From Bacteroidota bacterium (lineage in GTDB: Bacteria; Bacteroidota; Bacteroidia; 2-12-FULL-35-15), in contig CANJYB010000019.1 in NCBI GenBank assembly GCA_947479085.1, positions 27,119-91,118 of the forward strand: 64,000 nucleotides of DNA. Direction: 5' to 3'. A program made the translations under genes and the position numbers. Under the pieces are notes generated by a model. It was not told the DNA's origin. It worked only from the letters and a program-made list of their open reading frames with translations, and made no database searches. Positions 4,431 through 56,463 of this stretch are shown here, one piece after another; the first letter of the stretch is position 1, and every line of letters starts with the position of its first letter.

Positions 4431-4619
4431 TAGAACCACGTTATGACATACATAACCATGGTTCCGACACACATAACCATGGTTCCGACACACATAACCA
4501 TGGTTCAGACACACATAACCATGGTTCGAACACACCTCACCAACGTTATGACACACACAACCATGGTTCGGACACACTTAACCAACGTTATGACATACAT
4601 AACCATCGTTAGGATAGGC
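4431..4619. repeat. 21-bp tandem array A with palindromic cores
   Basis: Nine consecutive units of exactly 21 bp. Units at 4452, 4473, 4494, 4515 and 4557 carry the perfect palindrome AACCATGGTT, and CCATGG recurs at 4456, 4477, 4498, 4519 and 4561. The other units carry a CGTT or AACGTT variant (for example ACCAACGTTATGACACAC), so two unit types are interleaved. The array lies between the 3' ends of convergent genes and has no upstream promoter motif. The open frames across it follow from 21 being a multiple of 3. Confidence 0.95.
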
Positions 4620-4671
4620 CAGGAGTATAAACTAAATTACATAAACAAGTAAACTATTATACATTTTAATG

Positions 4672-4703
4672 AGATTCCTCAATTCGCTCGGAATGAGGAA
4701 TCT
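4672..4703. repeat. REP-like hairpin
   Basis: Inverted repeat AGATTCCTCA..TGAGGAATCT with inner ATTC/GAAT pairs around GCTCG. It lies in the convergent intergenic region next to array A and looks like a dispersed extragenic palindrome. Copy number elsewhere cannot be judged from this window. Confidence 0.6.
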
Positions 4704-4802
4704 GAATTTGTATAGTAGATAAAAAAACTCTTAATATGCTTGATTTTTTAGAGGAAATTGTCCTAAAAAAGTGTAAAACCTTCTGAATCTATTAGAACAT
4801 AG

Positions 4803-4836
4803 AAAAAGACCGGTAAACAGCTTACCAGTCTTTTTT
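4803..4836 (-). terminator. Terminator of the GloVer-repeat gene
   Basis: A stem GACTGGTAA with TTACCGGTC (read on the minus strand, one G-U pair) is flanked by A and T runs, 20 bp after the stop of the minus-strand gene. The symmetric A/T flanks could make it bidirectional. Confidence 0.85.
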
Positions 4837-4855
4837 ATAATAATATAATAACTAC

Positions 4856-6256
4856 CTATTTTTCTCTTACAAACTTTTCTGTCAGACCGTTTTTTGTTTT
4901 TGCAAAAAACACGTTTGGAAAAGAAGTAATGTCAACAGTAGTTTTGGTTAATGCAGAGGTTTTAATAGTTGAAAGTTCTCTGCCTAAAACATCAGTAAAG
5001 TTTATCACCTCCTCATTTTCCGAATTGGAAACAGTAAGCGAGTTTACAGCAGGATTAGGATAAATGCTAATTCCTGAGTTAGAGGTTAAAGAAGCTACAC
5101 CTACACTGGCAAATTCTGGAGTAATGGTTATTTCTCCATTAGGATGAGCACCAGTGGTAAGAGCACTGAAATCAGCTAATTTAGTATAGGTATTGATAGT
5201 AAAATTAATACTGAAAGAAACTCCTTCTCCGGTTGCACCGCCACCGTTGGTAGTTCCAAACAACATATTTCCGGATTGTGTTAAACTCCTGGTAGGATTA
5301 GCACCATTTGATCCGTTGAAATCAAGAATATCAGTAAATGCATTGGTAGCAGGATTGATACTGAATACAACACCCTGAGAAAAACTTCCTCCATAAGGTG
5401 TCATTCCATAAATCATTCCATTAGCTGCCTGAACTAAACCACCAACCGGGCCGGAACCCTGTAAACCATCAAAATCATGAATATCAGTAAATGTACCAGT
5501 TGAAAGGTCGAAGCTATAAACGATACCGTTATTGCTTGCTCCTCCCATTGAAGTCATACCATATATTTTACCATCTGTTCCTTGCATTACATCTCCAAAT
5601 TTAGGATGAGCTCCACCTACTCCATCAAAAACATAGAGCTTTGTGTAAACACTGGTTGCAGGGTCGAAACTGAAAATAACACCGTCTCCGTTAGCTCCTC
5701 CATTAAATGTAGTTCCATATAATTTCCCGTCAGGAAATTGAGTTAAACCACCATAAGGATTGCCTCCATTAACATTATCAAAATCAAAAATATCATAATA
5801 TTGATCATTAGCAGGGTCTATTTTAAAAATAACTCCTCCCCCATTTTGCCCACCGGCTGCACAGGTTCCGTACATTTTTCCATCACTTGCCAGCATCATT
5901 CCGCTCCATGATTCCCAACCCAATAAGGTGTTAGCAAATAAATCATGAATATTAGTATATGTTCCCGAAACGATGTCATATCTGAAAGAAACACAGCTAT
6001 CTCCAAAGCCGCCTAACTCCGTACATCCGTAAAGACTTCCATTACCTGCCAGGCACATACGCCCTACCGGCATTGCCCCGGAAGCATTAATAAAATTGTA
6101 AACTGTATGGAAATTATTTCCATTACCATCCGCAGAAAAAATAGTTCCTTGTCCGGTTGCTCCGCCACTGTAAGAAGTACCCCAAATCTGGGTTTGAGCG
6201 GTTGCGCTCAAGCTGATGAAAGCGAGCAGAATTAAAGATTGTAGAGTTTTTTTCAT
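4856..6256 (-). CDS. T9SS type A cargo with GloVer-type tandem repeats
   Basis: 466 aa with a signal peptide ending ATAQ at about residue 21. Seven repeats of about 55 aa contain YGTTxxGGANGDGVIFxxDP followed by a Tyr/Leu/Phe-rich strand and a GGxPxGGL turn. This is the signature of the GloVer repeat family, and seven units again fit a seven-bladed propeller. The C-terminal domain of about 75 aa (ISIYPNPAVNSLTV, FTDVLGREL, then FFAKTKNG) is a type A sorting domain. The first two repeats are the most diverged. It is divergent from the next gene, with 171 bp between. The function of the propeller is unknown; surface exposure is inferred from the sorting domain. Confidence 0.87.
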   Translation of the reverse strand: MKKTLQSLILLAFISLSATAQTQIWGTSYSGGATGQGTIFSADGNGNNFHTVYNFINASGAMPVGRMCLAGNGSLYGCTELGGFGDSCVSFRYDIVSGTYTNIHDLFANTLLGWESWSGMMLASDGKMYGTCAAGGQNGGGVIFKIDPANDQYYDIFDFDNVNGGNPYGGLTQFPDGKLYGTTFNGGANGDGVIFSFDPATSVYTKLYVFDGVGGAHPKFGDVMQGTDGKIYGMTSMGGASNNGIVYSFDLSTGTFTDIHDFDGLQGSGPVGGLVQAANGMIYGMTPYGGSFSQGVVFSINPATNAFTDILDFNGSNGANPTRSLTQSGNMLFGTTNGGGATGEGVSFSINFTINTYTKLADFSALTTGAHPNGEITITPEFASVGVASLTSNSGISIYPNPAVNSLTVSNSENEEVINFTDVLGRELSTIKTSALTKTTVDITSFPNVFFAKTKNGLTEKFVREK

Positions 6257-6427
6257 AATTGTAGATTTAAAGGTTTGTAATTATTCTGTAAGATTACTGA
6301 TAATACTTTAAATTTCAAAGCTTTATTTATTAACAATTTCATTTGTAAGTAATATTAAATTAACTTTGTTTTGAATTTCATGATTGCAAATTTGCATTTA
6401 ACATAACAATCTAAACATCAGAATACC

Positions 6428-8635: not shown

Positions 8636-8850
8636 GAAACACCTTATTTACCCTCCATTTGATTTAAACCCCTTTCCCTGCTTTCTGAGTTTTATAATAG
8701 TGATTATTGTCTTTGCAAATAGTTATTGCTATTCCATACCTGCCTTGCTTTTTATCTCTGCTTTTGGTAATTCTTGTTTATTCTTATCATTAATTAAATA
8801 ACCGATTTGTTAATTAAACCAAATAAAAAATAATTAATTGACATATCAAC

Positions 8851-8858
8851 TATATTTG
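8851..8858 (+). promoter_or_regulatory. Promoter -7 box of the MarR gene
   Basis: TATATTTG matches TAnnTTTG and lies 23 bp before the ATG. A TTG at the expected distance is not obvious. Confidence 0.55.
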
Positions 8859-8881
8859 TATCAGAATCAACAATCACCACG

Positions 8882-9310
8882 ATGGAAAAACTGGACCAGA
8901 TTATCTTTTATTCACTTGAAAAATCAATTAAAACATACCGTCAATATGCGCAACGGCAAATAAATCAGCAAAATTTTGATATAACCATTGATCAATGGTT
9001 GGTATTAAAAACCATACAGAACAATCCGTCAGCATCTCAGCAGGAAATAGCTGAAAGTGCATTTAAAGACTATGCCTCCATCACCAGGATGATTGAACTG
9101 CTTGTAAAAAAAGAATACCTTTCAAGGGACTTCCACTCCACCGACCGAAGAAGATTTGAATTGTCGATAACCGAAAAAGGAATAGAAATAATAAACGACA
9201 TTATGCCCATTGTTAAAGCCAACCGGAAACAGGCGCTCAAATCTTTTTCCAAAGAAGAGATTGAATCATTAAAAATATCATTAAATAAAATAATTAACAA
9301 TTGCAAGTAA
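8882..9310 (+). CDS. MarR-family transcriptional regulator
   Basis: 142 aa, the usual MarR length. An N-terminal dimerisation helix is followed by the winged helix (about residues 38-100). ITIDQWLVL, SQQEIAESAFKDYASITRM (recognition helix) and DFHSTDRRRFELSITEKG (wing with the D-x-R-R motif) are all recognisable. It should bind an inverted-repeat operator as a dimer and respond to a small ligand; the ligand is unknown. It begins a row of three plus-strand genes (gaps of 30 and 44 bp) with a protease and a serine hydrolase, so it may control them and itself. Confidence 0.9.
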   Translation: MEKLDQIIFYSLEKSIKTYRQYAQRQINQQNFDITIDQWLVLKTIQNNPSASQQEIAESAFKDYASITRMIELLVKKEYLSRDFHSTDRRRFELSITEKGIEIINDIMPIVKANRKQALKSFSKEEIESLKISLNKIINNCK

Positions 9311-9340
9311 TCAATACAAACCCATACTAATCAACCGACT

Positions 9341-10096: not shown

Positions 10097-10140
10097 CACC
10101 AACTATTCTTAATTATTAACCAACTAATAAACCTTCTGCC

Positions 10141-11562: not shown

Positions 11563-11602
11563 AATCCCAGATGATTTTATTAAGTAATTTTACTGATTAA
11601 CT

Positions 11603-11667
11603 ATCATTTTATATAAAATGATGGTCATTTAATACAAAGTGAGGACCGTTTTATATAAAGTCGAGGT
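11603..11667. repeat. 21-bp tandem array B (three units)
   Basis: Three 21-bp units start at 11605, 11626 and 11647 and align as CATTTTATATAAAATGATGG, CATTTAATACAAAGTGAGGA and CGTTTTATATAAAGTCGAGG (last base omitted). Bases 11603-11622 form a perfect 20-bp palindrome centred on ATATAT-like sequence. The array lies between a plus-strand stop and the next plus-strand promoter. The rest of the 11563-11877 spacer is AT-rich and otherwise empty apart from the glmM promoter. Confidence 0.85.
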
Positions 11668-11740
11668 TTATCTTTTTTTGTTAACATCTTTCCCCTGTTA
11701 TTTGTTATTAAATAATTAGTTCATCAAGTACCTAAAAACT

Positions 11741-11748
11741 TATCTTTG
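11741..11748 (+). promoter_or_regulatory. Promoter -7 box of glmM
   Basis: TATCTTTG matches TAnnTTTG. The -33 position has a weak GTTC rather than TTG. It implies a 5' leader of about 120 nt. Confidence 0.55.
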
Positions 11749-11877
11749 CAATCCGAAAAAATGTTCTTAACGCAAAGTCTGGAATCATAATTGATATACA
11801 GTAAAAAAGTTTAGGAATTAACCAATAGGGTTATTGTTTTTAACTCCATACATTAGAATTTATACTAAAAAGAAAAT

Positions 11878-13311: not shown

Positions 13312-13319
13312 ACCACTTT

Positions 13320-13350: not shown

Positions 13351-13364
13351 TATTACACAAACCA

Positions 13365-34489: not shown

Positions 34490-34837
34490 TAAGCCAAAAT
34501 GACTGAAAAGAAGTGTTTTCTGACGAAAAGACAGCCGAAATTTTAACAAATGCCTCGCGATGGTGCGCGAGAGCAGGCAAATGGTCCGCGAACGATTCGC
34601 AACAGTGCGCGAGAGTATCGCACTTGTGCGCGAACGATTCGCACTGGTGCGCGCGAGCAGGCAAATGGTTCGCGAGAGCAGGGCACTTATGCGCGAACGA
34701 TTCGCGATGATGCGCGAGAGTATCGCACTGGTGCGCGAGAGCAGGCAAACGGTGCGCGAGGGCAAGGCTCTGTGTTTTAATGAAAAGGAAATGGTACGCC
34801 AAGGCAATGAGATGGTAAGAGAAAGATTCCAAAGTGT
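34490..34837. repeat. 21-bp tandem array C, GC-rich, heptad-coding
   Basis: Ten clean 21-bp units (34565-34774) begin GCGCGAGAGCAGGCAAATGG or GCGCGAACGATTCGCACTGG (first 20 bases), with three degenerate units after and about three before (GACTGAAAAGA at 34501 and GACGAAAAGAC at 34522 are 21 bp apart). Unit types contain dyads (GCGAA-CGA-TTCGC and GCGA-GAGTA-TCGC). GC content is far above the surrounding AT-rich DNA. One plus-strand frame (34560-34877) reads as heptads of the type MVRESRQ/LVRERFA. Confidence 0.93.
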
Positions 34838-34936
34838 AAAAAAACAAGGGAGAAGGGAGCTTGACCGAATGAGATAGTGCATCTTTAATAAGAAATGATG
34901 CATAAACGGTAAGAAAAGAGGTCTTATTTCCGGTTT

Positions 34937-35413
34937 TTCATGTCTTGTTCATGAGATTCAATCTTGTGAACGAGAGAATGAATCTCGTGAACGTGAGAAT
35001 CTGTCATCAATCTGGAACCAACTGTCATAAATCTAGCACAACTTGATGGCAGTTCTGGGCAACTTGATGGCAGTTCAGCACAACTTGATGGCAGTTCAGG
35101 GCAACTTGATGGCAGTTCAGGACAACTTGATGGCAGTCCAGCACAACTTGATGGCAGTTCAGGGCAACTTGATGGCAGTTCAGCACAACTTGACGGCAGT
35201 CCAGCATAACTTGACGGCAGTCCAAAACAAGTTCTCATCCATCTGGCACAAGTCCATGGCAATCTAGGACAAGTTATCATCAATCTGGGACAACTTGTTA
35301 TCAATCTAGCACAACTTATTATCAATCCAGGACAACTTATCATCAATCTAGGCCAACTTGTGATCAATCCAGAACAACTTATCATCAATCTAGCACAAGT
35401 TATCGGGTATTTG
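34937..35413. repeat. 21-bp tandem array D
   Basis: Eighteen consecutive 21-bp units (35036-35413), preceded by a few degenerate ones. The first nine are nearly identical (CAACTTGATGGCAGTTCA core with an AACT/AGTT dyad). The later nine form a second subtype (CAACTTATCATCAATCTA and similar). Neighbouring units alternate GCA/GGG/GGA at their first bases. The remaining spacer (35414-35732) shows nothing recognisable apart from AT-rich DNA and short stem-loops. Confidence 0.95.
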
Positions 35414-35732
35414 GCCAAGATTTCCTGCCATTTATTCTACATTGAGGGGCGCATGGTGTCATACTGGCATATTTAAAACACCTCCCAACTCAAATCCCTA
35501 AAGAAGCCGACTTCCATCTTTATTTACGTTGGCAAATCATCCTACCCTAATTCAAATCTTCTCAATCATGATAATCTGTGCTTACAGTCCCGATTTTCTT
35601 TCGGGGTTCCATCCTGCCCTAACTTCACCCACTATTAAATTCATAATTGTAATATTAGGTTCTTAATAATCCACATCCGCCCTTTCTAATTTTATTTACC
35701 TTTAAGCCATAAAAACAATACTGAAAACCCAA

Positions 35733-46100: not shown

Positions 46101-49100
46101 ATGGAATCACCTGGAATACTGCAACGATATATTCTACCGTTAATCTTTATTATTCCCTGAATAATGGTACAACCTGGACAACGATTGCAACATCTCAAAC
46201 AAATAATGGTTTCTATTCCTGGACAGTGCCGAATGCAAATTCTACCACATGTTTGGTTCGTATTGCAAACACAGCTGATGTAACTATTAAAGATGAAAGC
46301 GATGCTGTATTTACAATTATACCTGCTGTTAAAATTGTTACTCCTAACGGAGGAGAATTACTTGGAGGATGTACAGTTACCTCTATCACTTTTCAGCATT
46401 CACCTACTTATACAAATTTTTCTATTCAATATTCGATTAATAATGGTGTAAGCTGGATTACTATCAATTCAAGTTTCACAAGTGCAGCTAACCCAGCAAC
46501 GCTTACCTGGAGTTTGCCTAATACCGGAAGTACAGTAACTTTGGTTAAGGTTATTCCAAATACACAGCCATCGTATTTTGATTTAAGTGATGCTGTATTT
46601 ACTATCGTTAAACCAGTGACTATTATTCAACCTAATTTTGGTGGAATACTTCAGGTTGGAAGTAATTATAACATTACATGGTCTTCAGATGGTATTTCCA
46701 ACGTATATGATATTTTCTATTCAACAAATGGAGGTGCATCCTATACAAACATTATAACGGCTTATAATACTGCTACCAATCAATATACCTGGACATTACC
46801 TAATACTCCTTCTACAAACTGTAAAGTATGGGTAAGAGATAATACAGCAAGTTGTAAAAATGATACGAGTGATGTGGCTTTTACTATCAGCACAACAGCT
46901 CCTCCTGTTACCCTGTTAACACCAAATGGAGGTCAGACACTCTCAGGATGTCAAAGTTATAACATCACCTGGACAGACTCTCCGGTAATAGGAACTTATG
47001 ATATTGCTTATTCAACCAATGGAGGAACAACGTTTACCAATATTGTTACAGGTTATGCAACTGTTTCAGGAAGTTATTCATGGATACTTCCGAACGGATT
47101 AAGTTCTTCCAATTGTTTGATTCGGGTGCGTTCAACTGCTCAGCCTACAACATTAGATATGAGTGATGCGGCATTTACCATCAACACAGGCAGTATTACT
47201 TCAACAAGCGATACCACCATTTGTGCCAACGTTCCTTTACAACTGAATGCAACTGGTGGCGTTAACTATTCATGGTCACCTGCTACCGGATTAAGCTCTA
47301 CAACCATTGCAAATCCTGTTGCTACCTTAAGTTCTTCTGTAACTTACACTATTACTTCCAATAACGGAGGTTGTATTTATACAGACAACCTTGCTGTAAC
47401 TGTTGTATCAGGAAATCCTGCAGCTACAGTTGCCATTGCAGCATCTCCTTCTAATATAATTTGTAACTCCGCAACAGTGACCTTTACAGCGACTCCAACG
47501 AATGGAGGATATAATCCAACCTATCAATGGAAAGTCAATAATGTGAATGTCGGAACAAACAGTCCAACTTATGTTACGTCATCCTTAACTAATGGACAGG
47601 TGGTTACCTGTGTTATGACCTCAAGTTATGCTTGTGTAACAGGAAGCCCAGCTACCTCCAATGCCGTTACTATGAGTGTATCTAATATTGTTACTCCATC
47701 TGTTTCAATATCTGCTTCGCCTTCATCAACAATTTGTGCTGGTATTTCGGTTACTTTTACAGCAACTCCAACCAATGGAGGAGCCTCACCAAGTTATCAA
47801 TGGAAACTGAACGGAAGTCCTGTTGGGACAAACAGCTCTACCTATACAAGCACTACCTTGAGTAATGGAGATATTGTTGCCTGTGTAATGACAACCAATG
47901 CCCTTTGTTATACATCAGCAACTGCCACTTCTTCCAATATCACTATGACTGTGAATACAGTTCCTACTGCACCATTGGGTATTAACGGAAACGTTTCAAT
48001 TTGCTCTAACAGTTCAAATAACTACAGTATTAACCCTGTTTTCGGTGCTACTTCTTATACGTGGACTTTACCAAGCGGATGGTCAGGGTCTTCAACTTCT
48101 ACAAGTATTGCAACAGTGGCAAATACCGCTGGTGGTTATATTACAGTAACTGCTAACAATGCTTGCGGAAGCAGTACAACCCAAAGTATCTCTGTGAACG
48201 TAAACCTTGTTCCAACACAACCTATAGCAATTACTGGTAATGCAACTATTTGCAGCAGCACCAGCAATATCTATCAGGTGGCGGCTGTAAGTGGCGCAAC
48301 TTCATATACATGGACGCTTCCGAGCGGGTGGACCGGATCTTCTTCGAGCAATTCGATCACTACAACTTCCAGCACTATATCGGGAAATATAACAGTAACC
48401 GCAAATAATGCCTGTGGAAGTAGTTCATCTCAAGTGCTTGCAATAACTGTAAATACAGTTCCAACACAACCCGGAACAATTACAGGAAATGCAACTATTT
48501 GTTCCGGTTCAACAAATACTTATTCTATTTCGGCTGTTGCCGGAGCTACCTCTTATACCTGGACTTTACCAAGTGGATGGAGCGGAGCATCGAGCACAAC
48601 AAGTATTTCTGCCCAGGCAAATACTACCAGCGGAAACGTAACTGTTGTTGCTAACAATTCTTGCGGTGCAAGTACGTCAAGAACATTTGCGGTAACTGTA
48701 ACTAATGCACCAACACAACCTGGTACAATTACAGGAAGTGCCACAGTTTGCGCCAACGCAACAGCTACTTATAGTATTACTGCGGTTAGTGGAGCTACTT
48801 CTTACAACTGGATCCTACCTTTAGGTTGGACAGGAACCTCAACTACCAATTCAATAACTGCAACTGTGGGTGTTTCCGGAGGAACTATATTAGTTTCTGC
48901 TGTAAATTCCTGCGGGGTGAGCAGTGCACAAAGCTTGACTGTGAATGTAAATTCAATAACGGCTCAACCTGGTGCTATTTCCGGAAACAATGTGGTTTGT
49001 AGTAATACATCAAACATTTATACAATTTCCGGGGTTAGCGGTGCTACTTCATACACATGGACATTACCAGGTGGATGGACAGGAACTTCTACAAATACTT

Positions 49101-52100
49101 CTATAACTACCACCTCAAGTGCTACTTCAGGTAATATTACAGTAGTTGCAAATAATTCATGTGGTGCAAGTTCTTCACAATCGTTTGCAGTTACAGTAAA
49201 TACTGTACCTCCACAGGCAGGTGCTATAAGTGGTACAACACCGGTTTGTAATGGTTCGACAAATACATATAGTATAAATCCAATTGGTACTGCAACCTCT
49301 TACACGTGGACTTTACCAAGCGGGTGGTCTGGTACTTCAACCTCTACATCAATTAGTGCAACCGCATCTGCAAATAGTGGTAATATTACTGTAGTAGGTG
49401 TAAATACTTGTGGAAACAGCCAGTCACAAACATACGCTGTAACCGTAAATAATCCTCCTACTCAGCCTGGCGCAATCAGTGGTTTAGCGGCTATTTGTGC
49501 TAATAACACCACTACTTATACCGTTTCAGCCGTTGCAGGTGCAACAGGATATACCTGGACTTTACCGGGTGGATGGTCAGGAACTTCTACCACTAATAGT
49601 ATTACTGCTACTGCAGGGTCAACAGGAGGTGTAATTTCCGTTACTGCCGATAATGCTTGTGGCTCAAGTACGGTAAGAAACTTAACAGTCACCGTAAATC
49701 CTTCACCTACAATTGTTGTTTCAAGTGATGCTACTATTTGTTCAGGAACATCAACTCCTTTAACAGCAAGTGGGGCTGCTACATACACTTGGTTGCCGTC
49801 TGCCAGTTTAAATAACGCCTCCATTGCAAATCCAACAGCGACACCTGCAGTTACCACAACTTATACAGTTACCGGAACTGCTGCAGGTTGCCCTAATACA
49901 AATGTTGTGACCATTACAGTAACTCAAACCCCTACAATAACTGTTTCAGGAACAAACGCAATATGTACAGGAGGAAGTACAAATCTTACTGCTAATGGCG
50001 CAACAACTTATTCATGGTTGCCAGCTGCAAGTTTAAGTAATGCTTCTATTGATACTCCTGTTGCTACTCCTGCTTCAACAACAACTTATACTGTAACAGG
50101 AACTACCAGCGGATGCAGCAATACAGGAACATATACAGTAACAGTAAATTCTATCCCTGTAACATCAGCTTCAGGAACTGCAACAATTTGTGCCGGAACA
50201 AATACAACTTTAGGTGCCACAGGAGCAACTACTTACAGTTGGTTACCTTCTGCAACATTAAACAATCCATCTATTGCTAATCCTGTTGCAACTCCAACTA
50301 CTACTACCACTTATACAGTGACAGGTATATCATTAGGTTGTTCATCTACAGCCACCGTTACTATTACAACTACCACAGCACCAACTGCCAATGCAGGGCC
50401 TGATGCTTCGTATTGTGTTGGTGGAAGTGCTCAGCTTACCGGAAGTGGTGGCGGAACCTATTCATGGTTACCTGCAACCGGTTTAAGTGCAACCAACATA
50501 TCTAATCCTGTTGCAAGTCCAACTATTACTACTACTTATACACTAAGTGTTTCAAATGGAACTTGTTCGGCAACGGATGTTGTTGTTGTAACTGTAAATA
50601 CACTTCCAAGTGCTAACGCAGTTACTGATGTAAGTATTACATGTGGTAACAGCACTAATCTATCTGCTTCTGGCGGAACTACTTATTCATGGAGCCCAAC
50701 TACAGGCCTAAGCAATCCAAATATTGCGAACCCCGTTGCGAACCCTCTTTCAACTACCACCTATACGGTAACGGTAAGCAATGGTTCATGTTCAGGAACT
50801 GATGCAGTTGTTGTGACTGTTAATCCGGTTGTAGCTAATGCAGGAAATGATGTTACTATTAGTTGCGGCAATAGCACTACTTTATCTGCTTCCGGTGGAG
50901 CAACCTATTCATGGTCTCCAACAACGGGATTAAGTAATCCTAACATTGCTAATCCGATAGCTAGCCCAGGTGCAACAACCACTTATACCGTAACTGTAAA
51001 TAATGGAGTTTCCTGTACCGCAACAGATGCTGTTGTAGTAACTGTAACTGCTCTTACAGCAAATGCTGGAAATGACGTAACAATAACTTGTGGTGCAAGT
51101 ACAACATTATCCGCATCTGGAGGTACTACTTATTCATGGAGTCCAACTACAGGATTAAGCAACCCTAATATTGCTAACCCTGTAGCGAATCCTGCTGCAA
51201 CAACTACTTATACTGTTACTGTTAACAATGGAGTTTCCTGTACAGCAACAGATGCGGTGGTAGTTACGGTAAATGCTCTCACAGCTAATGCTGGAAATGA
51301 TGTTACTATCTGCAGCAATACAACAACTACATTAACAGCTACTTCAAACGGAACAGGAGCAGGTTATTCATGGAGTCCAACAACAGGATTAAGCAATCCA
51401 AACATTGCTAACCCGGTTGCAAACCCTTCATCTACTACTTCTTATACATTAACCGTAACAAGCGGAATATGTAATGCAAATGATGTGGTGGTGGTTATAG
51501 TTAATACCGCTCCTACAGTTACTGCAGGAACTCCTGCAAGTATATGTTCAGGAACTACTACTCCGCTGACAGCATCAGGAGGAATCACTTATTCATGGTT
51601 ACCTTCAGCTACATTGAGTAATGCATCTATTGCAAATCCTATAGCTACTCCATTAACCACTATTACTTATACAGTAACAGGTTCAGATGGAACTTGTTCT
51701 TCTACTGCAACAGTATTAATTAACGTTACTGCTTCTCCGGTAGCTAATGCCGGTTCAAATGTAACCATAGCTTGTGGTGCATCCACCACATTAGGAGCAT
51801 CAGGCGGAACAAGCTATTCATGGAGTCCAACTACAGGATTAAGCAATCCTAACATTGCTAATCCTGTTGCTACACCTCCTTATACAACTACTTATACTGT
51901 AACGGTTTCTAACGGAACTTGTTCATCAACCGCTTCGGTAACCTTAACAACAGGCACTTTATCTGTTAATGCAGGGTCTGATGTAACCATTTGTACAGGA
52001 AGCAGCACTACTCTTGCGGGTTCAGTAACAGGTGGAAGTGGTTCTTGGGTGAATATGCATACCAGCTATGTATTTACAGAGAATGTAGGTACTTATGCTC

Positions 52101-55100
52101 CTATCTCAGGTGGAACAGTATTCGTGAATACCGCTTCTGCTTCAATGGACGATGTAGTTTCTGGTGCAATCGCAATTCCGGCATTTACATTTAACAATAC
52201 CGTGTATACAAGTTTATACATTACAACTAATGGTATAGTTTCCTTTGGATCCGCACCAACAGCAATAAGTTTACCTATATCAGGCGGAGATACTTACGCA
52301 GGATGTATTTCAGCATTCGGAATGGACCTTAACAGATCATTTACCGGTGGAACACCTGAAGTAAGATATCAGCAAGTTGCAAACGAATTTGTCATTCAAT
52401 GGCAGGATATGGGAAGATATACTACTGCAACTACTACTTATGACAGATTTAGTTTCCAGATAAGATTAAATACTTCTACTAATCAAATTAAAATAGTTTA
52501 TTCTGCTGTTGCAACTTTAGGTGCTTATGCCACTTATCCTGAAGTAGGATTAAGAGGAGTTGACGGAACGTATGCAACAAATGTAAGTAACAGAAACATT
52601 ATTGCTTCAACCGGTGCCTGGGTAAATTCAACTGCAGGAGTAACGAATGCAAGTACCTGTTATTTCAATAGTGCTACCCCTGGGACAGTACCGGCAGCAG
52701 GAACAACATTTACATGGTCATTACCTGCAACTTCTTCTTATTCATGGGCTCCGGCTACAGGTTTAAGTTCAACAACTATTTTAAACCCGGTTGCTAATCC
52801 AACAACTACTACTACTTATACATTAACTGCTACCAGTGGTACTTGTACTGCAGTAGACATGGTTACCATTACCGTTGGTGGAAGTGTTGCCAATGCCGGA
52901 TCGGATGTTTCTATCTGTTCAGGCAATAATACACAGTTGAATGCTACAGGAGCCACATCTTATACATGGTTACCTGCTGCCGGATTAAGTGCAACGAATA
53001 TCGCAAATCCTATTGCTACGCCTGCATCCACCACTACTTATACAGTAACCGGAACTACCGGAACCTGTACTTCAACTGATGCTGTTGTGGTAACCGTGGT
53101 AGCTCAACCGATAGCAAACGCGGGGGCTGATGTCGCCATTTGTTCCGGCAACTCCACTACTCTATCTGCTTCAGGTGGTACTACTTATTCATGGTCACCG
53201 GCAACAGGACTGAGCAATGCAAACATTGCTAACCCGGTTGCAAATCCATCTTCAACTACATCATATACTGTAACTGCTTCTAACGGATCATGTTCTTCAA
53301 CAGATGTTATGGTGGTAACTGTTAACGCTATTCCTACTGCCAATGCAGGAAGTGACGCTACAATTTGTTCAGGCACAAGTACTACTTTGGGTGCTTCAGG
53401 CGGAACATCTTATTCATGGTTACCTGTTACCGGATTGAATGCTGCAAACATTGCATCACCAATAGCTACTCCGGCTGCTACTACTACTTATACAGTAACT
53501 GTTTCTAACGGAACCTGTTCTTCTACAGACGCAGTGGTGGTAACAGTGAATGCTACTCCGGTTGCCAATGCAGGAACTGACGTTACTATCTGTTCCGGAA
53601 GTACGACCAACCTGAACGCTTCTGGTGGAACTAGTTATTCATGGACACCTTCTACAGACCTAGATAATGCTGCAATTGCTAATCCGATTGCCAGCCCTAC
53701 AGTGACCACTACTTATGTAGTTACTGCAACCACTGCAGGTTGTTCTGCAACTGATGCAGTGATTGTTAACGTAGTGGCTCCTCCGGTTGCTAATGCAGGA
53801 AGTGATGTTGCTATTTGCTCTGGAAATACAACAAACCTAAGTGCTTCCGGTGGAACATCTTATGTTTGGACACCTTCAACAGGATTATCTTCATCTATTA
53901 TTTCTAACCCTGTGGCTAATCCAACATCAACAACCACTTATACAGTTTCTGTTTCTAACGGAACCTGTTCGGTAACTGATGCTGTTGTGTTAACTGTTAA
54001 CCCTACTCCGGTTGCGGATGCCGGTCTTGATGTTACAATATGTTCAGGAAGCTCAACTAATTTAGCTGCCAATGGTGGAACCATCTATTCATGGAGCCCT
54101 GCAACTGGATTAAGTGACCCTAATATTGCAAACCCGGTTGCTTCTCCTTCCGGAACATCCATTTATGTAGTAACTGTTTCAAACGGATTGTGCAGCTCGC
54201 AGGATGCTGTAACTGTTAACGTGGTTTCTCCTCCTGTTGCTAATGCAGGAAATGATGTTACTATTTGCTCCGGAACAACAACTAACCTTAATGCTTCAGG
54301 TGGTACTGTTTACTCATGGTCTCCATCGGCCGGGTTAAGTAATGCTTCTATAGCAAACCCTGTTGCTTCTCCTGGTTTCACAACTACTTATTCGGTAACA
54401 GTTTCTAACGGAACCTGTTCAACAACAGATGCAGTAATTGTAAACGTGAACCCAACTCCTTTAGCTAACGCAGGAAGTGATGTTACGGTTTGTTTAGGAA
54501 ATAACACTACATTGAATGGTTCAGGCGGAACTACTTATTCATGGTCACCGGCAACCGGATTAAGCGACCCTAACATTGCAAATCCTGTGTGTACTCCAAT
54601 CGTCAATACAACTTATATCTTAACTGTTTCCAATGGAATATGTTCAGATAATGATACGGTATCTGTGATTGTAAACATTGCCAATGCAGGTCCGGATGTT
54701 GCTATTTGTTCGGGTGCAAGCACTATTTTGAATGCTGTGGGAGGAACAACCTATTCATGGTTACCAATAACAGGATTAAGCAATGCAAATATTGCTAACC
54801 CGGTTGCAACACCATTAGCAACTACTACCTATACAGCAACTGTTTCCAGTGCATGTGGAACCACTGTTGATTCGATAACAGTAACAGTATTACCTTTACC
54901 TATTGCTGATGCCGGAGTAGACACCACCATTTGTTCTGGAACTTCAGTGATGCTGAATGCAACAGGCGGAGTATCTTATACCTGGTTACCAACCACTGGT
55001 TTAAGTAATGCATCTGTTTCAAACCCTGTTGCTACCCCTGCTGCTACAGCTACTTATACAGTATCTGTGTCGGACGGAACGTGCTCTTCAACCGATATGG

Positions 55101-56110
55101 TAACCGTAACTGTTAATACAACTCCGGTTGCAAATGCAGGTTCAGATGTTAACATTTGTTCAGGAAACACTACAACGTTGAATGCTTCTGGAGGAACAAA
55201 TTATGCTTGGTTGCCTGCTACTGATTTATCAGCAGCGAACATTGCAAATCCGATAGCAAGTCCTACAACCACTGTTACTTATACGGTAACGGTATCTAAC
55301 GGAAACTGTTCTTCTACCGACATGGTAGTGGTGACCGTAAACAGCTTACCTGTAGCTCCGGCTTCTATTTCCGGTCCAACTACTGTATGTGAAGGTTCAA
55401 GCAATATATTCTATGTAGCTACCGACCCTAACATTACCAATTACTTCTGGGCATTGCCAGGAAACTGGACTGGAAGTTCTGTAACGGATTCAATCACTTT
55501 GGTTGCTAACGTAAGCAGTGGTACCTTAGCAGTTACAGCAAGTAACGGTTGTGGCTCTGCTTCACCGGTAATACTGAACATAACATTGAACCCTGCTCCT
55601 ATTGTACAAATTGGTGCCATGGCACATGTTTGTAACAATGCCGGCCCGATTGCTCTAACTACAGGTTTCCCTTCAGGTGCAGGTGGTGTGTATTCTGGTA
55701 TTGGTGTTAGTGGAATCAACCTGTTTGACCCGGGAGTATCTGGTGTAGGTACATTTACTATTACTTATACTTATACAGACCCGAACTCAGGTTGTTCAGC
55801 TTCTGCTAACGGTCCTTTAACAGTTGACTTATGTACAGGTCTTGCTTCAGGAAATAACAATACAGATGTAACTGTTTATCCTAATCCATTCCTTGACTAT
55901 ACCACTGTTAAAATTGGAGATGGAATAACATTAGATAATGCATCCATTGTTGTATTTGATGTATTGGGCAAACAGGTAATTAACATGACCAATGTTACGG
56001 AACATGAAGTGAGAATAGAAAGAAATGACCTGAATTCAGGAATGTATTTCTATAAATTAATCAATAATGACAAAGTAATTACCACCGGAAGATTGATTAT
56101 TTCGGAATAA
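40163..56110 (+). CDS. Giant T9SS type A adhesin, 5,315 aa
   Basis: Signal peptide 1-23 (ends AAAQ). (1) Residues about 24-2345: 24 repeats of about 96 aa with (V/I)TVTxPNGGExW..G(C/L)..(Y/H).ITW, an aromatic YYSxNNG strand and VPN..S..CL(V/I)(K/R)V, resembling Kre9/KNH-type Ser-Thr-rich domains. (2) One Ig-like unit and two SYQWKxNGxxVG Ig units. (3) Seven PKD-like units (ITGNATICSGSTNTYSI, then SYTWTLPSGWSG). (4) About 22 Ig-like units of about 67 aa (NAGSDVTICSGxSTTL.ASGG, then YSWSPATGLSNxNIANPVA, then TTTYTVTVSNG), one of them carrying a nidogen-like insertion. (5) A last PKD-like unit, an Ig-like unit and a type A sorting domain (VTVYPNPFLDYTTV, GMYFYKLI). The repeats are the rigid stalk type of surface adhesins. 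Largest gene in the window (25%). Confidence 0.93.
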   Translation: MRLVRLLSAVLFTAFAFNNAAAQTVTVTNPNGGNVLYVCQSYTITWTQTGSPSNYWNIDYSANGGSTWSSIASNLLVANGQFVWTVPNIQTTTALIRLTDTQNPATTDVSNSYFTVNIPITVTAPNGGETWSALTSHNITWNTLGTSGNYNIYYSVDGGASWITIATNYASATGTYAWNVPNNPSVQCKVRVMDYVTNCMVDESNNNFTILAATPILLTPNGGETLQVGCNYTITWTASTFFSAVKLEYSTNNGGSWTTITTSTSNTGSYSWTVPNAVSINCLIRASNTSDLTSFDVSNAVFIIAPPVIVTSPNGGETLTGCSNTTITWAKSNCISTYWNIYYSINNGTTWVNIAYALSDNGSTSQSYSWYVPNNLVSAQGLIRIESYNNPGTYYDVSNAAFTFAQSNNIQVTAPNGGESVLGCSTLAITWTKLVSPCNTSYNLYYSTNNGTTYTYITSVTDNGTNFQSYSWTVPNGITTTQALIKVESGNWTNISDVSNAAFNINPSADITVSAPNGGESWQGLTSHTITWTNLAGASGLYTIQYSINNGSTWATLATNYTGNSYVWASVPNTPSTTCLVKVIDYLNNCKFDVSNANFTITAATPVLLTPNGGENFSVACTGYSITWNTATIYSTVNLYYSTNNGSSYTAIATGLSNNGSYNWTIPNFPSTQCLVKIANTADLTSFDVSNAVFTIAVPVTVTAPNGGESWVGCTSYNITWTKSTCIGGYWNIYYSTNNGGTWTAIVNAVTDNGATSQTYGWQVPNGVTSSQALIKVESYYYPTSYFDQSNGVFTISPSNDITVVTPNGGQTLASQSSYNITWTNTAAVSGNYTIQFSSNNGASWNTVATNITGNSYTWTVPNTSSSQCLIRVYDYNNSCRIDQSDATFTVTPSGPVLLTPNGGETVQIGCTYNITWTASTFISPVKLEYSTNSGSTWVQIIASTTNNGVYGWVVPNTVSANCLVRASNTSDLTLFDFSDAVFTIAPAVTVTAPNGGETITGCSNVNITWNKSNCVSTYWNIYYSINNGTTWVQIVNALTNSGGNSQTYSWYVPNNLSSTTALIKVESYSNPSTYFDQSNAVFTINPSQNITVTSPNGGETATGCSPFNITWNKSTSPCNSNFTIYYSLDNGVTYVGITTVADNGLASQTYSWSVPNTLTSTQALIKVVSYDWNNIFDVSNAVFTINPSADITVTSPNGGETWQGLSSHTITWSNLAGASGLYSIQYSTNGGSSYTSIVTNITGNSYTWNVPNIPSTTCLIKVIDYLTPCKFDVSDALFTISPATPIVLTPNGGQQFNVACTTGITWNTATYYSTVNLYYSIDNGATYTTIATNQTNNGYYTWTIPNFPSTNCLIKVANYANTAVYDVSDVVFTILTPVTVTSPNGNENWYGCSTYNITWNKSTCVTTYWNIFYSIDNGNTWTYVVNAVADNGSANQSYAWTVPNTITTTQALIKVESYYSTAYTDVSNSVFNISPSNDITLTAPNGGQVIAALSTYTITWTNLGTASGQYSLQYSINGGSSWNNIVSNITGNSYNWTVPNTAVSTNCLIRVFDYINSCKIDQSDAVFTITPPQPILLTPNGGESLQILCSYNITWNASTFYSPVKLEYSTNGGATWFNIIASTANNGSYNWSVPNTVSSNILVKASNTADLSLYDVSDALLAIPASVTVTSPNGGENLVGCTNTTITWNKSNCIGNWNIYYSLNNGSTYTLIASPTNNGTVSQSYTWYVPNNLTTTQGLIKIESASYPGTYLDVSNANFSITPNQNITVTAPNGSETWAGCNTYNITWTKSASPCNTGFDIYYSLDNGATYNYITSVTDNGATSQTYAWTLPNNLNSIQAKIKVVSSNYNNINDASNNAFTVLPSNDITVTSPNGGQTIQGLTTYTISWTNSIYASGLYNVYYSLNNGSSWTTLTTNYSGNSYSWNVPNVSSTTCLVRVMDYLANCRLDISDAVFTIAPATPILLTPNGGETLNTGATYGITWNTATIYSTVNLYYSLNNGTTWTTIATSQTNNGFYSWTVPNANSTTCLVRIANTADVTIKDESDAVFTIIPAVKIVTPNGGELLGGCTVTSITFQHSPTYTNFSIQYSINNGVSWITINSSFTSAANPATLTWSLPNTGSTVTLVKVIPNTQPSYFDLSDAVFTIVKPVTIIQPNFGGILQVGSNYNITWSSDGISNVYDIFYSTNGGASYTNIITAYNTATNQYTWTLPNTPSTNCKVWVRDNTASCKNDTSDVAFTISTTAPPVTLLTPNGGQTLSGCQSYNITWTDSPVIGTYDIAYSTNGGTTFTNIVTGYATVSGSYSWILPNGLSSSNCLIRVRSTAQPTTLDMSDAAFTINTGSITSTSDTTICANVPLQLNATGGVNYSWSPATGLSSTTIANPVATLSSSVTYTITSNNGGCIYTDNLAVTVVSGNPAATVAIAASPSNIICNSATVTFTATPTNGGYNPTYQWKVNNVNVGTNSPTYVTSSLTNGQVVTCVMTSSYACVTGSPATSNAVTMSVSNIVTPSVSISASPSSTICAGISVTFTATPTNGGASPSYQWKLNGSPVGTNSSTYTSTTLSNGDIVACVMTTNALCYTSATATSSNITMTVNTVPTAPLGINGNVSICSNSSNNYSINPVFGATSYTWTLPSGWSGSSTSTSIATVANTAGGYITVTANNACGSSTTQSISVNVNLVPTQPIAITGNATICSSTSNIYQVAAVSGATSYTWTLPSGWTGSSSSNSITTTSSTISGNITVTANNACGSSSSQVLAITVNTVPTQPGTITGNATICSGSTNTYSISAVAGATSYTWTLPSGWSGASSTTSISAQANTTSGNVTVVANNSCGASTSRTFAVTVTNAPTQPGTITGSATVCANATATYSITAVSGATSYNWILPLGWTGTSTTNSITATVGVSGGTILVSAVNSCGVSSAQSLTVNVNSITAQPGAISGNNVVCSNTSNIYTISGVSGATSYTWTLPGGWTGTSTNTSITTTSSATSGNITVVANNSCGASSSQSFAVTVNTVPPQAGAISGTTPVCNGSTNTYSINPIGTATSYTWTLPSGWSGTSTSTSISATASANSGNITVVGVNTCGNSQSQTYAVTVNNPPTQPGAISGLAAICANNTTTYTVSAVAGATGYTWTLPGGWSGTSTTNSITATAGSTGGVISVTADNACGSSTVRNLTVTVNPSPTIVVSSDATICSGTSTPLTASGAATYTWLPSASLNNASIANPTATPAVTTTYTVTGTAAGCPNTNVVTITVTQTPTITVSGTNAICTGGSTNLTANGATTYSWLPAASLSNASIDTPVATPASTTTYTVTGTTSGCSNTGTYTVTVNSIPVTSASGTATICAGTNTTLGATGATTYSWLPSATLNNPSIANPVATPTTTTTYTVTGISLGCSSTATVTITTTTAPTANAGPDASYCVGGSAQLTGSGGGTYSWLPATGLSATNISNPVASPTITTTYTLSVSNGTCSATDVVVVTVNTLPSANAVTDVSITCGNSTNLSASGGTTYSWSPTTGLSNPNIANPVANPLSTTTYTVTVSNGSCSGTDAVVVTVNPVVANAGNDVTISCGNSTTLSASGGATYSWSPTTGLSNPNIANPIASPGATTTYTVTVNNGVSCTATDAVVVTVTALTANAGNDVTITCGASTTLSASGGTTYSWSPTTGLSNPNIANPVANPAATTTYTVTVNNGVSCTATDAVVVTVNALTANAGNDVTICSNTTTTLTATSNGTGAGYSWSPTTGLSNPNIANPVANPSSTTSYTLTVTSGICNANDVVVVIVNTAPTVTAGTPASICSGTTTPLTASGGITYSWLPSATLSNASIANPIATPLTTITYTVTGSDGTCSSTATVLINVTASPVANAGSNVTIACGASTTLGASGGTSYSWSPTTGLSNPNIANPVATPPYTTTYTVTVSNGTCSSTASVTLTTGTLSVNAGSDVTICTGSSTTLAGSVTGGSGSWVNMHTSYVFTENVGTYAPISGGTVFVNTASASMDDVVSGAIAIPAFTFNNTVYTSLYITTNGIVSFGSAPTAISLPISGGDTYAGCISAFGMDLNRSFTGGTPEVRYQQVANEFVIQWQDMGRYTTATTTYDRFSFQIRLNTSTNQIKIVYSAVATLGAYATYPEVGLRGVDGTYATNVSNRNIIASTGAWVNSTAGVTNASTCYFNSATPGTVPAAGTTFTWSLPATSSYSWAPATGLSSTTILNPVANPTTTTTYTLTATSGTCTAVDMVTITVGGSVANAGSDVSICSGNNTQLNATGATSYTWLPAAGLSATNIANPIATPASTTTYTVTGTTGTCTSTDAVVVTVVAQPIANAGADVAICSGNSTTLSASGGTTYSWSPATGLSNANIANPVANPSSTTSYTVTASNGSCSSTDVMVVTVNAIPTANAGSDATICSGTSTTLGASGGTSYSWLPVTGLNAANIASPIATPAATTTYTVTVSNGTCSSTDAVVVTVNATPVANAGTDVTICSGSTTNLNASGGTSYSWTPSTDLDNAAIANPIASPTVTTTYVVTATTAGCSATDAVIVNVVAPPVANAGSDVAICSGNTTNLSASGGTSYVWTPSTGLSSSIISNPVANPTSTTTYTVSVSNGTCSVTDAVVLTVNPTPVADAGLDVTICSGSSTNLAANGGTIYSWSPATGLSDPNIANPVASPSGTSIYVVTVSNGLCSSQDAVTVNVVSPPVANAGNDVTICSGTTTNLNASGGTVYSWSPSAGLSNASIANPVASPGFTTTYSVTVSNGTCSTTDAVIVNVNPTPLANAGSDVTVCLGNNTTLNGSGGTTYSWSPATGLSDPNIANPVCTPIVNTTYILTVSNGICSDNDTVSVIVNIANAGPDVAICSGASTILNAVGGTTYSWLPITGLSNANIANPVATPLATTTYTATVSSACGTTVDSITVTVLPLPIADAGVDTTICSGTSVMLNATGGVSYTWLPTTGLSNASVSNPVATPAATATYTVSVSDGTCSSTDMVTVTVNTTPVANAGSDVNICSGNTTTLNASGGTNYAWLPATDLSAANIANPIASPTTTVTYTVTVSNGNCSSTDMVVVTVNSLPVAPASISGPTTVCEGSSNIFYVATDPNITNYFWALPGNWTGSSVTDSITLVANVSSGTLAVTASNGCGSASPVILNITLNPAPIVQIGAMAHVCNNAGPIALTTGFPSGAGGVYSGIGVSGINLFDPGVSGVGTFTITYTYTDPNSGCSASANGPLTVDLCTGLASGNNNTDVTVYPNPFLDYTTVKIGDGITLDNASIVVFDVLGKQVINMTNVTEHEVRIERNDLNSGMYFYKLINNDKVITTGRLIISE
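40520..46615 (+). repeat. Three copies of a seven-domain super-repeat (about 2.03 kb each)
   Basis: Inside the giant gene, domains 2-8, 9-15 and 16-22 follow the same order A-B-C-D-A'-B'-C'. Copies start at 40520, 42566 and 44600 (2,046, 2,034 and 2,016 bp). Marker segments track the order: TASTF..VKLEYS in B, NTAT(I/Y)YSTVNLYYS in B', SPCN in D, GASGLY or YASGLY in A'. The last C' (domain 22) is the most diverged. Confidence 0.85.
52033..52734 (+). other. Nidogen-like domain inserted within an Ig-like repeat (inside the giant CDS)
   Basis: The Ig unit NAGSDVTICTGSSTTLAGSVTGG is interrupted and resumes as YSWAPATGLSSTTILNPVA. Between lie about 234 aa (SWVNMHTSYVF, then IAIPAFTFNNTVYTSLYITTNGIVSFGS, then VQWQDMGRY-like and VGLRGVDGTYATNVSN) resembling the nidogen-like domains of the 735-aa protein at 6428. 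Confidence 0.75.
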
Positions 56111-56127
56111 GTTAGTCTCTGCGAACA

Positions 56128-56157
56128 AACCTGACAGGTTTTAAATACCTGTCAGGC
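56128..56157. repeat. CCTGACAGG-type hairpin
   Basis: CCTGACAGG, TTTTAAATA loop, CCTGTCAGG, 17 bp after the stop of the giant gene. Same core as the hairpin at 13320-13350. Confidence 0.8.
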
Positions 56158-56165
56158 TTATTATA

Positions 56166-56203
56166 AAAAAATCCTGTTCTTCGAAAGAAGAGCGGGATTT
56201 TTT
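56166..56203 (+). terminator. Terminator of the giant adhesin gene
   Basis: A 17-bp stem (two G-U pairs) capped by a GAAA tetraloop: AAAAAATCCTGTTCTTC with GAAGAGCGGGATTTTTT. Confidence 0.9.
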
Positions 56204-56397
56204 TCTTTCCTTTTTACCCTTAGTAGAAAAAACAGTATACAAAAAATCAAAACCTGACTACTTTATTATTATAGCCAATAAGGTAATAAGGTTGAATAAT
56301 TATCAGAAAGTCTGTTTTTTCTTACATGCTACAATCGAAATTAGTCCTTTCCGATTTTATTGTTTAAAGCATTTTAAGTTTTATTGACTTCCTTACG

Positions 56398-56463
56398 CCA
56401 TTTATGGAGCTCCATACGTCACGTATGGACGTCCATGCGTGACGTATGGAGCTCCATAAATGG
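56398..56463. repeat. 21-bp array E forming a 66-bp near-perfect palindrome
   Basis: Three 12-bp palindromes, ATGGAGCTCCAT (56404), ATGGACGTCCAT (56425) and ATGGAGCTCCAT (56446), are spaced exactly 21 bp with ACGTCACGT and GCGTGACGT between. The whole 66 bp is one palindrome centred at 56430.5, with a single unmatched pair (56424 T / 56437 G, a G-U pair in RNA). The rest of the spacer to 56733 is AT-rich; TACTTTCG just before 56710 may be a promoter box for the DPP IV gene. Confidence 0.93.

What the first reader, a model, noticed from the sequence alone, without database searches (positions are those of the whole stretch)
4431..56463. Five intergenic arrays with unrelated sequences but one shared 21-bp period
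Arrays at 4431, 11603, 34490, 34937 and 56398 all lie between genes and all repeat every 21 bp, yet their units share no sequence. Within most units a dyad or palindrome recurs at the same phase (AACCATGGTT; ATTTTATATAAAAT; GCGAA-CGA-TTCGC; AACT..AGTT; ATGGAGCTCCAT). 21 bp is two turns of B-DNA, so every palindrome would face the same side of the helix. 21 bp is also seven codons. Conservation of period but not sequence points to a process that generates or maintains period, for example a protein array, a nucleoid or termination structure, or a replication-slippage mechanism. I cannot name a described element with these properties.
Basis: partly seen in the sequence, partly recalled or inferred. 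Interest (0 to 1): 0.8.

Follow-up and report, generated by a model that had tools for sequence, protein, structure and literature searches.

The report
Intergenic repeats sharing only a 21-bp period
Between its genes this uncultured Bacteroidota bacterium carries dozens of apparently non-coding tandem repeats whose sequences differ from place to place but whose unit is almost always 21 bases (or 42 or 63), probably because an array passes on its unit length while its sequence is rewritten.

Summary
In 1.264 Mb of the 4.28-Mb genome, self-similarity at lags 21, 42, 63, 84, 105 and 126 covers 7,881-12,409 bases each; lags 20, 22, 41 and 43 cover 160-910; 19 and 23 none. I count 77 arrays, 66 intergenic, in similar fractions of co-directional, convergent and divergent regions. 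They show no sign of coding. Of 22 arrays of 42 bp, 15 are dyadic, with inverted 21-bp halves. Arrays are common in close relatives and nearly absent from 11 other genus members sampled. In relatives they recur at the same gene ends (6 of 19 versus 2 of 111); of eight such pairs compared by sequence, one is clearly related, three weakly, four not at all. Some were copied elsewhere as blocks. Best reading: satellite DNA under concerted evolution, unit length inherited and sequence drifting. Why 21, two helical turns, is unsolved. The kind is known: constant-size, variable-sequence 20-21-nt repeats in Bacillus and other bacteria (PMC8161180). New here: the Bacteroidota clade, the inverted 42-bp form and same-site replacement. 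Coding, curvature and REP transposases are not supported as the cause.

The parts
4440..4610 (.). Array A1, 21-bp unit ~GTTCnGACACACATAACCATG, 8.1 copies, between convergent genes 2177-4261(+) and 4856-6256(-)
   Evidence: TRF; context; a relative array lies in G004:C1 (L162:569-729, 66% over 161 bp); G004 has an unrelated 21-bp array beside the orthologue of gene 4856-6256
11605..11666 (.). Array A2, ~2.9 copies, unit ~CATTTTATATAAAGTGAGGAC, weak
   Evidence: TRF (score 66); not reached by the lag scan
34555..34772 (.). Array A3, GC-rich 21-bp units with 42/63-bp higher-order pattern, about 240 bp downstream of the gap gene 32833-34314
   Evidence: TRF; 72% copy at G000:C16:18153-18348; stop phases no better than chance
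34953..35001 (.). Array A4, unit GAGAATCAATCTCGTGAACGA, 2.3 copies; same family as an array on contig C3
   Evidence: TRF; 80% match over 87 bp of 34914-35000 to C3:27680-27766
35035..35404 (.). Array A5, two abutting sub-arrays (35035-35221 and 35227-35404), 21-bp with 42/63-bp higher order
   Evidence: TRF; units printed
56403..56458 (.). Array A6, near-palindromic unit TATGGAGCTCCATACGTCACG, 2.7 copies
   Evidence: TRF; dyad p 0.005; 79% copy at G000:C12:23730-23888, with one flank shared beyond the array

Best explanation
These are satellite-like, apparently non-coding tandem arrays that likely grow and are rewritten by slippage or unequal exchange in whole 21-bp units, so that the unit length is inherited while the sequence drifts. 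Shown: the period is near-exact and genome-wide; arrays sit between genes without visible regard to gene direction; units are more alike inside an array than at its ends; some arrays exist as whole-block copies at other sites; at the same gene end in related species an array is often still present, with a unit that ranges from clearly related to unrelated. Inferred: a unit with an indel falls out of register, cannot exchange with its neighbours and is lost, so the length maintains itself ('register trap'); the many families in this clade descend from one or a few founding 21-bp arrays by copying plus concerted drift; 42-bp arrays arise when an inverted pair of units becomes the new unit. Not explained by this alone: why unrelated bacteria also have 20-21-nt units, which suggests a two-helical-turn preference at birth.
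For: Period: (lags 21-126 in steps of 21 at 7,881-12,409 bases, against 0-2,079 at all other lags from 8 to 130). Non-coding: 72 open frames against 68.4 +/- 4.8 expected, and at least one open frame in 40 of 58 arrays against 39.7 expected; no 3-periodic variation pooled over 22 arrays (Fisher p 0.91). Gene direction: 41 of 412 co-directional, 8 of 83 convergent and 10 of 129 divergent regions hold an array. Concerted evolution: mean match to consensus 0.645 in the outermost unit, 0.80-0.85 in the second to seventh, 0.38/0.32/0.30 just outside, 28 arrays. Block copying: C4:80379-80819 / C16:36145-36564 (86% over 441 bp, one gap of exactly 21), C16:64670-64974 / C5:1335-1640 (87%), C13/C10 (75%), C8/C1 (69%). 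Site persistence: 6 of 19 gene ends with an array here also have one in a relative, against 2 of 111 without (Fisher p 1e-4; one site counted three times). Drift at one site: downstream of the 596-aa gene beside C4:47718 four species carry arrays; G000-G004 share descent (score 41, null 8.2 +/- 1.8), G000-G015 weakly (p 0.03), G000-G012 not (p 0.82). Register: 421 substitutions against 7 gaps that are not multiples of 21 in eight copy pairs, of which three share members; 1,240 substitutions against 20 indel positions in 27 arrays of 100 bp or more, one of them inside a gene.
Against: The same 20-21-nt size in Bacillus, and by report in other phyla (PMC8161180), cannot be shared descent with this clade; a 15-unit 21-bp array also occurs in a distant Bacteroidota MAG (L042). 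Arrays of other period survive (lags 20, 22, 41, 44, 61, 62, 83, 102, 120), so the trap leaks. Several 42-bp arrays have lag-21 identity at or below background (0.09-0.29), so a direct 21-bp ancestor is not visible in them. The edge decay is partly built in: the scan window lets called ends run past the true array, and units deeper than the seventh fall to 0.76-0.79 (15 units). I have no neutral indel:substitution ratio for this genome, so the rarity of off-register gaps is not calibrated. In some copy pairs in-register identity barely exceeds off-register identity (0.85 against 0.84 for C16/C5), and for C4/C16 it is lower at shift 0 (0.77) than at -21 (0.80), because of the 21-bp gap.
Confidence: 0.48

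Rival explanations
1. The arrays are platforms for a DNA-packaging or nucleoid protein that tiles DNA in two-turn (21-bp) steps with little sequence preference; selection removes out-of-phase indels.
For: 21-bp quantum and almost only even numbers of turns; dyad symmetry of 42-bp arrays, whose two dyad axes lie 21 bp apart (15 of 22); gaps off register are rare; the same size in unrelated bacteria (PMC8161180, whose authors propose a nucleoid protein).
Against: No recognition word common to the arrays (the commonest 6-mer is in 9 of 58 array consensuses; several A-rich words, GGGAA in 12 and AACGTT in 6, do exceed single-base shuffles). No 10.5-bp A+T phasing. Arrays are nearly absent from 11 other sampled members of the genus, so such cells do not need them. 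No protein was identified.
Confidence: 0.28
2. A REP-associated tyrosine transposase (RAYT) or other single-strand HUH enzyme makes and moves the arrays.
For: In G000, G004, G014 and G015, 7 of 7 copies found of one RAYT subfamily have a 21-bp array on their 5' side within 1.1 kb (one of them only 67 bp long), with different units; the 2 copies in G020 and G001 have none. For comparison, 10.6% of 904 genes in G000 have an intergenic array within 450 bp and 15.9% within 1,300 bp, either side, and 1 of 7 full-length IS200-like copies has one nearby. In G014 the only arrays I saw that do not look coding are at its two copies. Whole arrays do get copied.
Against: The RAYTs have their own hairpin beside the gene (TTTGCAGGTG...CACCTGCAAA in 6 of 9 upstreams, a TTGTTGGTG/CACCAACAA variant in 2), including the two copies without arrays. 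Long intergenic regions hold arrays anyway (22 of 61 at 450-700 bp, 27 of 47 at 700 bp or more). For 4 of the 7 copies only 410-640 bp downstream of the match start was available, so the 3' side is not a fair control. Y1 transposases occur in 21 of 25 genus genomes, among them 8 of the 11 array-poor ones. G005 and G012 have arrays but no match to this subfamily at E<=1e-5.
Confidence: 0.08
3. The arrays encode heptad-repeat (coiled-coil-like) peptides; 21 bp is seven codons.
For: At least one frame is open in 29 of 32 arrays, against about 21.5 expected when unit columns are permuted (observed count; the expectation is my sum of that call's per-array values). Some open frames look heptad-like (e.g. 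the 105-aa ORF 34560-34877). One array (L009:1535-1788) varies most at one codon position (p 0.048).
Against: With the number of stop phases held fixed, open frames are as expected by chance (72 against 68.4 +/- 4.8). No 3-periodic variation pooled. The C4/C16 block pair and others have stops in all six frames. Lags 20, 22, 41 and 44, not multiples of 3, occur. No Pfam match for the two ORFs across A3.
Confidence: 0.04
4. The arrays act as transcribed RNA hairpins (regulatory or sponge RNAs).
For: Folding energy is lower than in column-permuted controls (Fisher p 3e-7, 10 of 29 at p<0.05). In 42-bp arrays complementary pairs exceed shuffles (735 against 652.3, z 6.1).
Against: No covariation in 21-bp arrays (1,449 paired against 1,465.8 expected, z -1.0); of the excess of 83 in 42-bp arrays 49 comes from the one array C9:29272. 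No visible preference for gene direction. No Rfam family in the window except three tRNAs. No expression data.
Confidence: 0.08

Closest known systems
Constant-size, variable-sequence bacterial tandem repeats of 20-21 (and 52) nt (Subirana and Messeguer; PMC8161180: abstract, introduction, part 1 of 2 of Results, Discussion, figure legends and tables read)
   Same: Unit length fixed near 21, several unrelated families per genome, mostly not coding, 40-41-nt repeats 'related to' them, sequence species-specific, rich in some species and absent from others.
   Different: Bacteroidota; about 61 arrays per Mb here by my own, looser criterion (the most 20-21-nt repeats among the example genomes of their Table 4 is 30); 42- and 63-bp members with inverted halves; no word common to all arrays; arrays found at the same gene ends across species with changed sequence.
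Eukaryotic satellite DNA under concerted evolution (general knowledge)
   Same: Homogeneous interior and decayed edges, higher-order repeats, rapid sequence turnover with constant monomer length.
   Different: Short arrays (about 60-690 bp) dispersed between bacterial genes.
REP/BIME palindromes and RAYT 'REPtrons' (PMC3733652, PMC6006769; passages read)
   Same: Short intergenic repeats with dyads, found near RAYT genes.
   Different: No constant hairpin or tag word; tandem with fixed period; the genome has separate REP-like hairpins, and the RAYTs have their own.
Plasmid iterons (recalled, not searched)
   Same: Direct repeats about two helical turns apart.
   Different: Iterons keep one sequence per replicon; these do not.

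Membership tests
Constant-size variable-sequence 20-21-nt tandem repeats | Unit length fixed at 20-21 nt across unrelated sequences in one genome | tested here: met
   lag spectrum
Constant-size variable-sequence 20-21-nt tandem repeats | Not protein-coding | tested here: met
   one search leaned the other way under a cruder null
Constant-size variable-sequence 20-21-nt tandem repeats | Several sequence families, species-specific, only partly kept between genomes | tested here: met
Constant-size variable-sequence 20-21-nt tandem repeats | A characteristic short word in the repeats of most arrays of a species (reported for B. weihaiensis; I take it as a reported trait, not as part of the basic definition) | tested here: not met
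   commonest 6-mer in 9 of 58, commonest 5-mer in 16 of 58 consensuses
REP elements mobilised by RAYT | One conserved palindromic sequence with a tag tetranucleotide | tested here: not met
   no common sequence; the RAYT hairpin is separate
REP elements mobilised by RAYT | Copies flank the RAYT gene | tested here: inconclusive
   7 of 7 copies in four array-bearing genomes, 0 of 2 outside; long intergenic regions are rich in arrays anyway
Heptad-repeat coding satellites | One open frame kept, variation 3-periodic | tested here: not met
Nucleoid-protein or iteron-like binding arrays | A protein that binds each unit | not testable with these tools
   Needs biochemistry

The most novel reading that the evidence does not exclude
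The cell has a sequence-blind process that copies, inverts and repairs intergenic DNA in quanta of two helical turns (21 bp): it builds arrays of any sequence, alternating or direct, at preferred intergenic sites, rewrites their sequence between species, and removes steps that break the 21-bp register.
Probability: 0.2. Interest if true: 0.85.

Novelty: new variant of a known kind. Interest (0 to 1): 0.55.

Why it matters
Period conserved without sequence is a puzzle of bacterial tandem repeats that its describers call enigmatic (PMC8161180). This clade offers dense arrays, a related species (G016) with almost none in about 100 kb sampled, and orthologous sites where arrays recur while their sequence changes. 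That makes inheritance of period, physical constraint and protein selection separately testable.

Tried and rejected
Coding: permuting unit columns suggested too many open frames (29 of 32 arrays), but holding the number of stop phases fixed removed the signal. Hairpin covariation: a first count (z 20) was an artefact of mixing two kinds of dyad axis in 42-bp arrays; corrected. Curvature: no 10.5-bp A+T phasing (z -0.2 and -1.4 in 41 arrays of 21 bp; 0.9 and -0.5 in 22 of 42 bp); A+T signals at 5.25 bp (z 6.1 and 6.9) and 7 bp (4.3 and 3.8) in 42-bp arrays and at 3.5 bp (3.1 and 1.4) in 21-bp arrays are unexplained and may come from related families. Perfect palindromes are not enriched overall (Fisher p 0.55). 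Contiguous conservation within the unit is weak (p 0.006, 3 of 22 arrays). RAYT as the maker: see rivals. Flanking dispersed repeats (CCTCACCCCTTAATCCCCTCTCC hairpins; a GACCCGCGCGAAGTATCC terminator-like repeat) are separate families.

Rows dropped before counts: 5 of 27 arrays without 55% identity at lag 21 or 42; arrays under 84 bp (8 of 66); two 41-bp, one in-gene and one 105-bp-like array; arrays of other classes or under 8 units from the edge profile; genes under 450 bp, gene ends within 500 bp of a sequence end and matches under 68% identity; G016 is not.

Literature: searches. Three returned nothing. No Bacteroidota report of this kind appeared in those listings. The main 2020 survey (PMC7549362) is not held; what I say of it comes from the introduction of PMC8161180.
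Full report
What is there. TRF finds 21-bp arrays at 4440-4610, 11605-11666, 34555-34772, 34953-35001, 35035-35404 and 56403-56458. The window is G000:C19:27119-91118 of a 4.28-Mb, 50-contig genome. Its gap gene (32833-34314, glyceraldehyde-3-phosphate dehydrogenase by Pfam) is closest, among the 80 named loci kept of 592 that encode a relative, to unnamed Bacteroidetes MAGs at up to 73% identity.

Is the period real? I took 60 stretches of 20 kb of the same genome and, with the window, scanned 1.264 Mb for self-similarity of at least 70% over 42 bp. Bases covered: lag 21, 9,252; 42, 12,060; 63, 9,489; 84, 12,212; 105, 7,881; 126, 12,409. Neighbouring lags are far lower: 20, 340; 22, 772; 41, 910; 43, 160; 19 and 23, none. 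Odd numbers of helical turns are nearly absent: 31/32, 119/0; 52/53, 224/0; 73/74, 0/0. The largest other lag is 120 (2,079). In the first 464 kb, shuffled intergenic sequence gave nothing at any lag scanned, and genes gave nothing at lag 21. There are 77 arrays (61 per Mb), 66 of them intergenic. They occur in 59 of 624 intergenic regions of 40 bp or more, mainly long ones (22 of 61 at 450-700 bp, 27 of 47 at 700 bp or more), in similar fractions of co-directional (41 of 412), convergent (8 of 83) and divergent (10 of 129) regions. Gene calls are my own open reading frames of 100 aa or more.

Not coding. Variation between units is not 3-periodic (22 of 27 arrays tested, Fisher p 0.91; one array at p 0.048). 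A first test with permuted unit columns gave more open frames than expected (at least one in 29 of 32 arrays). A second test that keeps the number of stop phases of each array gave 72 open frames against 68.4 +/- 4.8, and at least one open frame in 40 of 58 arrays against 39.7. I take the second as the fairer one.

Symmetry. Direct 21-bp arrays are marginally dyadic (6 of 41 at p<0.05, Fisher p 0.016). Arrays whose best unit is 42 bp are strongly dyadic (15 of 22, Fisher p 2.5e-10), several with lag-21 identity at or below background (0.09-0.29), because the two 21-bp halves are inverted. Pairs across the dyad do not covary in 21-bp arrays (z -1.0). In 42-bp arrays there is an excess (735 against 652.3, z 6.1), of which 49 of 83 come from one long mixed array. 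No word is common to all arrays, though some A-rich words, GGGAA and AACGTT exceed shuffles, and A+T is not phased at 10.5 bp.

How arrays behave. Units are more alike inside an array than at its ends: match to consensus 0.645 in the outermost unit, 0.80-0.85 in the second to seventh, 0.76-0.79 in the few deeper ones, and 0.38, 0.32 and 0.30 just outside (28 arrays). Part of the edge effect is built in, because the scan window lets called ends run past the true array. It is what slippage or unequal exchange predicts, but it is not proof. Some arrays exist as block copies at other sites: C4:80379-80819 and C16:36145-36564 are 86% identical over 441 bp and differ by one gap of exactly 21 bp; C16:64670-64974 and C5:1335-1640 are 87% identical; A3 and A6 of the window have copies on C16 (72%) and C12 (79%). 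In eight copy pairs, three of which share members, I count 421 substitutions and 7 gaps that are not multiples of 21; in 27 arrays, 1,240 substitutions and 20 indel positions against the consensus. I could not calibrate this against a neutral rate.

Relatives. In stretches not chosen for arrays, bases in 21-multiples per 100 kb are 2,100 in G004, 1,702 in G015, 974 in G005, 182 in G016 and 0 in G014 (15 kb); G000 has 1,259 without the window. G012 has a 246-bp array in one 15-kb stretch and G005 two more in 20 kb; 20 kb each of G014 and G016 had none. Eleven other genus members have 172 bases in one coding-looking segment in 493 kb; smaller loci add 72 bp in G008 and 66 bp in G017 and a 219-bp stretch in G007 that also has a 36-bp period. 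G014 has arrays at its two copies of one RAYT gene. Among 80 Bacteroidota loci (1.45 Mb) one MAG, L042, has a clear 15-unit array. The other lag-21 or 42 matches there are 7-bp repeats, one low-complexity stretch, or under 100 bp, and L093 has two 63-bp stretches.

Same site, other sequence. Of 130 gene ends comparable between G000 and relatives, 6 have an array in both, 13 only in G000, 2 only in the relative and 109 in neither (Fisher p 1e-4). Part of the loci were fetched because G000 has an array there, and one site counts three times. Eight pairs at shared sites were compared by sequence against column-permuted controls. Four show nothing: A1 and the gap-gene arrays against G004, C13:32844 against G015, and C4:47718 against G012. 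Three are weak or borderline: C4:62267 against G004 (18 against 12.8 +/- 1.9, highest of 200 controls 19), C7:76052 against G004 (14 against 9.1 +/- 1.2, highest 14), and C4:47718 against G015 (p 0.03). One is clear: C4:47718 against G004 (41 against 8.2 +/- 1.8). Coding DNA of these species is only 76-84% identical, so much of this divergence could be neutral; what needs explaining is that periodicity survives it.

Mechanism. I favour satellite DNA under concerted evolution: exchange in whole units rewrites the sequence, keeps the length, and drops units that fall out of register; copying spreads arrays to new sites. The exchange and the loss of off-register units are inferred. The reading does not explain why Bacillus and, by report, other phyla show the same 20-21 nt (PMC8161180); a physical preference for two helical turns, or a protein that tiles DNA in such steps, remains the main rival. 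RAYT transposases were followed because arrays lie 5' of 7 of 7 copies of one subfamily found in four array-bearing genomes; they have their own hairpin, and long intergenic regions are array-rich anyway, so I do not hold them to be the cause.

Known or new. PMC8161180 (abstract, introduction, part 1 of 2 of Results, Discussion, legends and tables read) describes this kind in Bacillus: 20-21-nt units, variable sequence, in general not coding, function unknown, with the remark that the length is two helical turns. PMC6749651 (abstract and part 1 of 2 of Results read) surveys prokaryotic satellites. PMC8625621 (passages) reports transcription of 52-nt satellites. This is therefore a new variant of a known kind.

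Noticed in passing
G004:C1:1-411 (L279), G015:C27:38426-38836 (L296), G000:C5:191925-192320 (L283) and others: A RAYT-like transposase subfamily with its own upstream hairpin (TTTGCAGGTG...CACCTGCAAA); in four genomes all seven copies found have a 21-bp array on the 5' side.
   Followed up: partly
G000:C2:35755-35795 and many places, also in G004, G015, G016: A REP-like dispersed hairpin (CCTCACCCCTTAATCCCCTCTCCAAAGGAGAGGGG), 88-100% identical in the best matches across species of the genus.
   Followed up: partly
window 40163-56110: A 5,315-aa open reading frame with 225-bp internal repeats.
   Followed up: no
42-bp arrays, e.g. G000:C13:57613-57893: A+T content has an unexplained 5.25-bp periodicity in 42-bp arrays (z 6-7), possibly from related families.
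   Followed up: no
G004:C14:47360-47708 versus window 34553-35418 and G000:C7:76052-76263: The array between two genes in G004 lies where gene order differs from G000, and both corresponding ends in G000 carry arrays; arrays may be recombination points.
   Followed up: partly
G005:C312 (L267:894-1035): A 20-bp-period array near a RAYT gene, a minority period.
   Followed up: no
window 61642-62077: Three tRNA genes, the only Rfam matches in the window at gathering scores.
   Followed up: no
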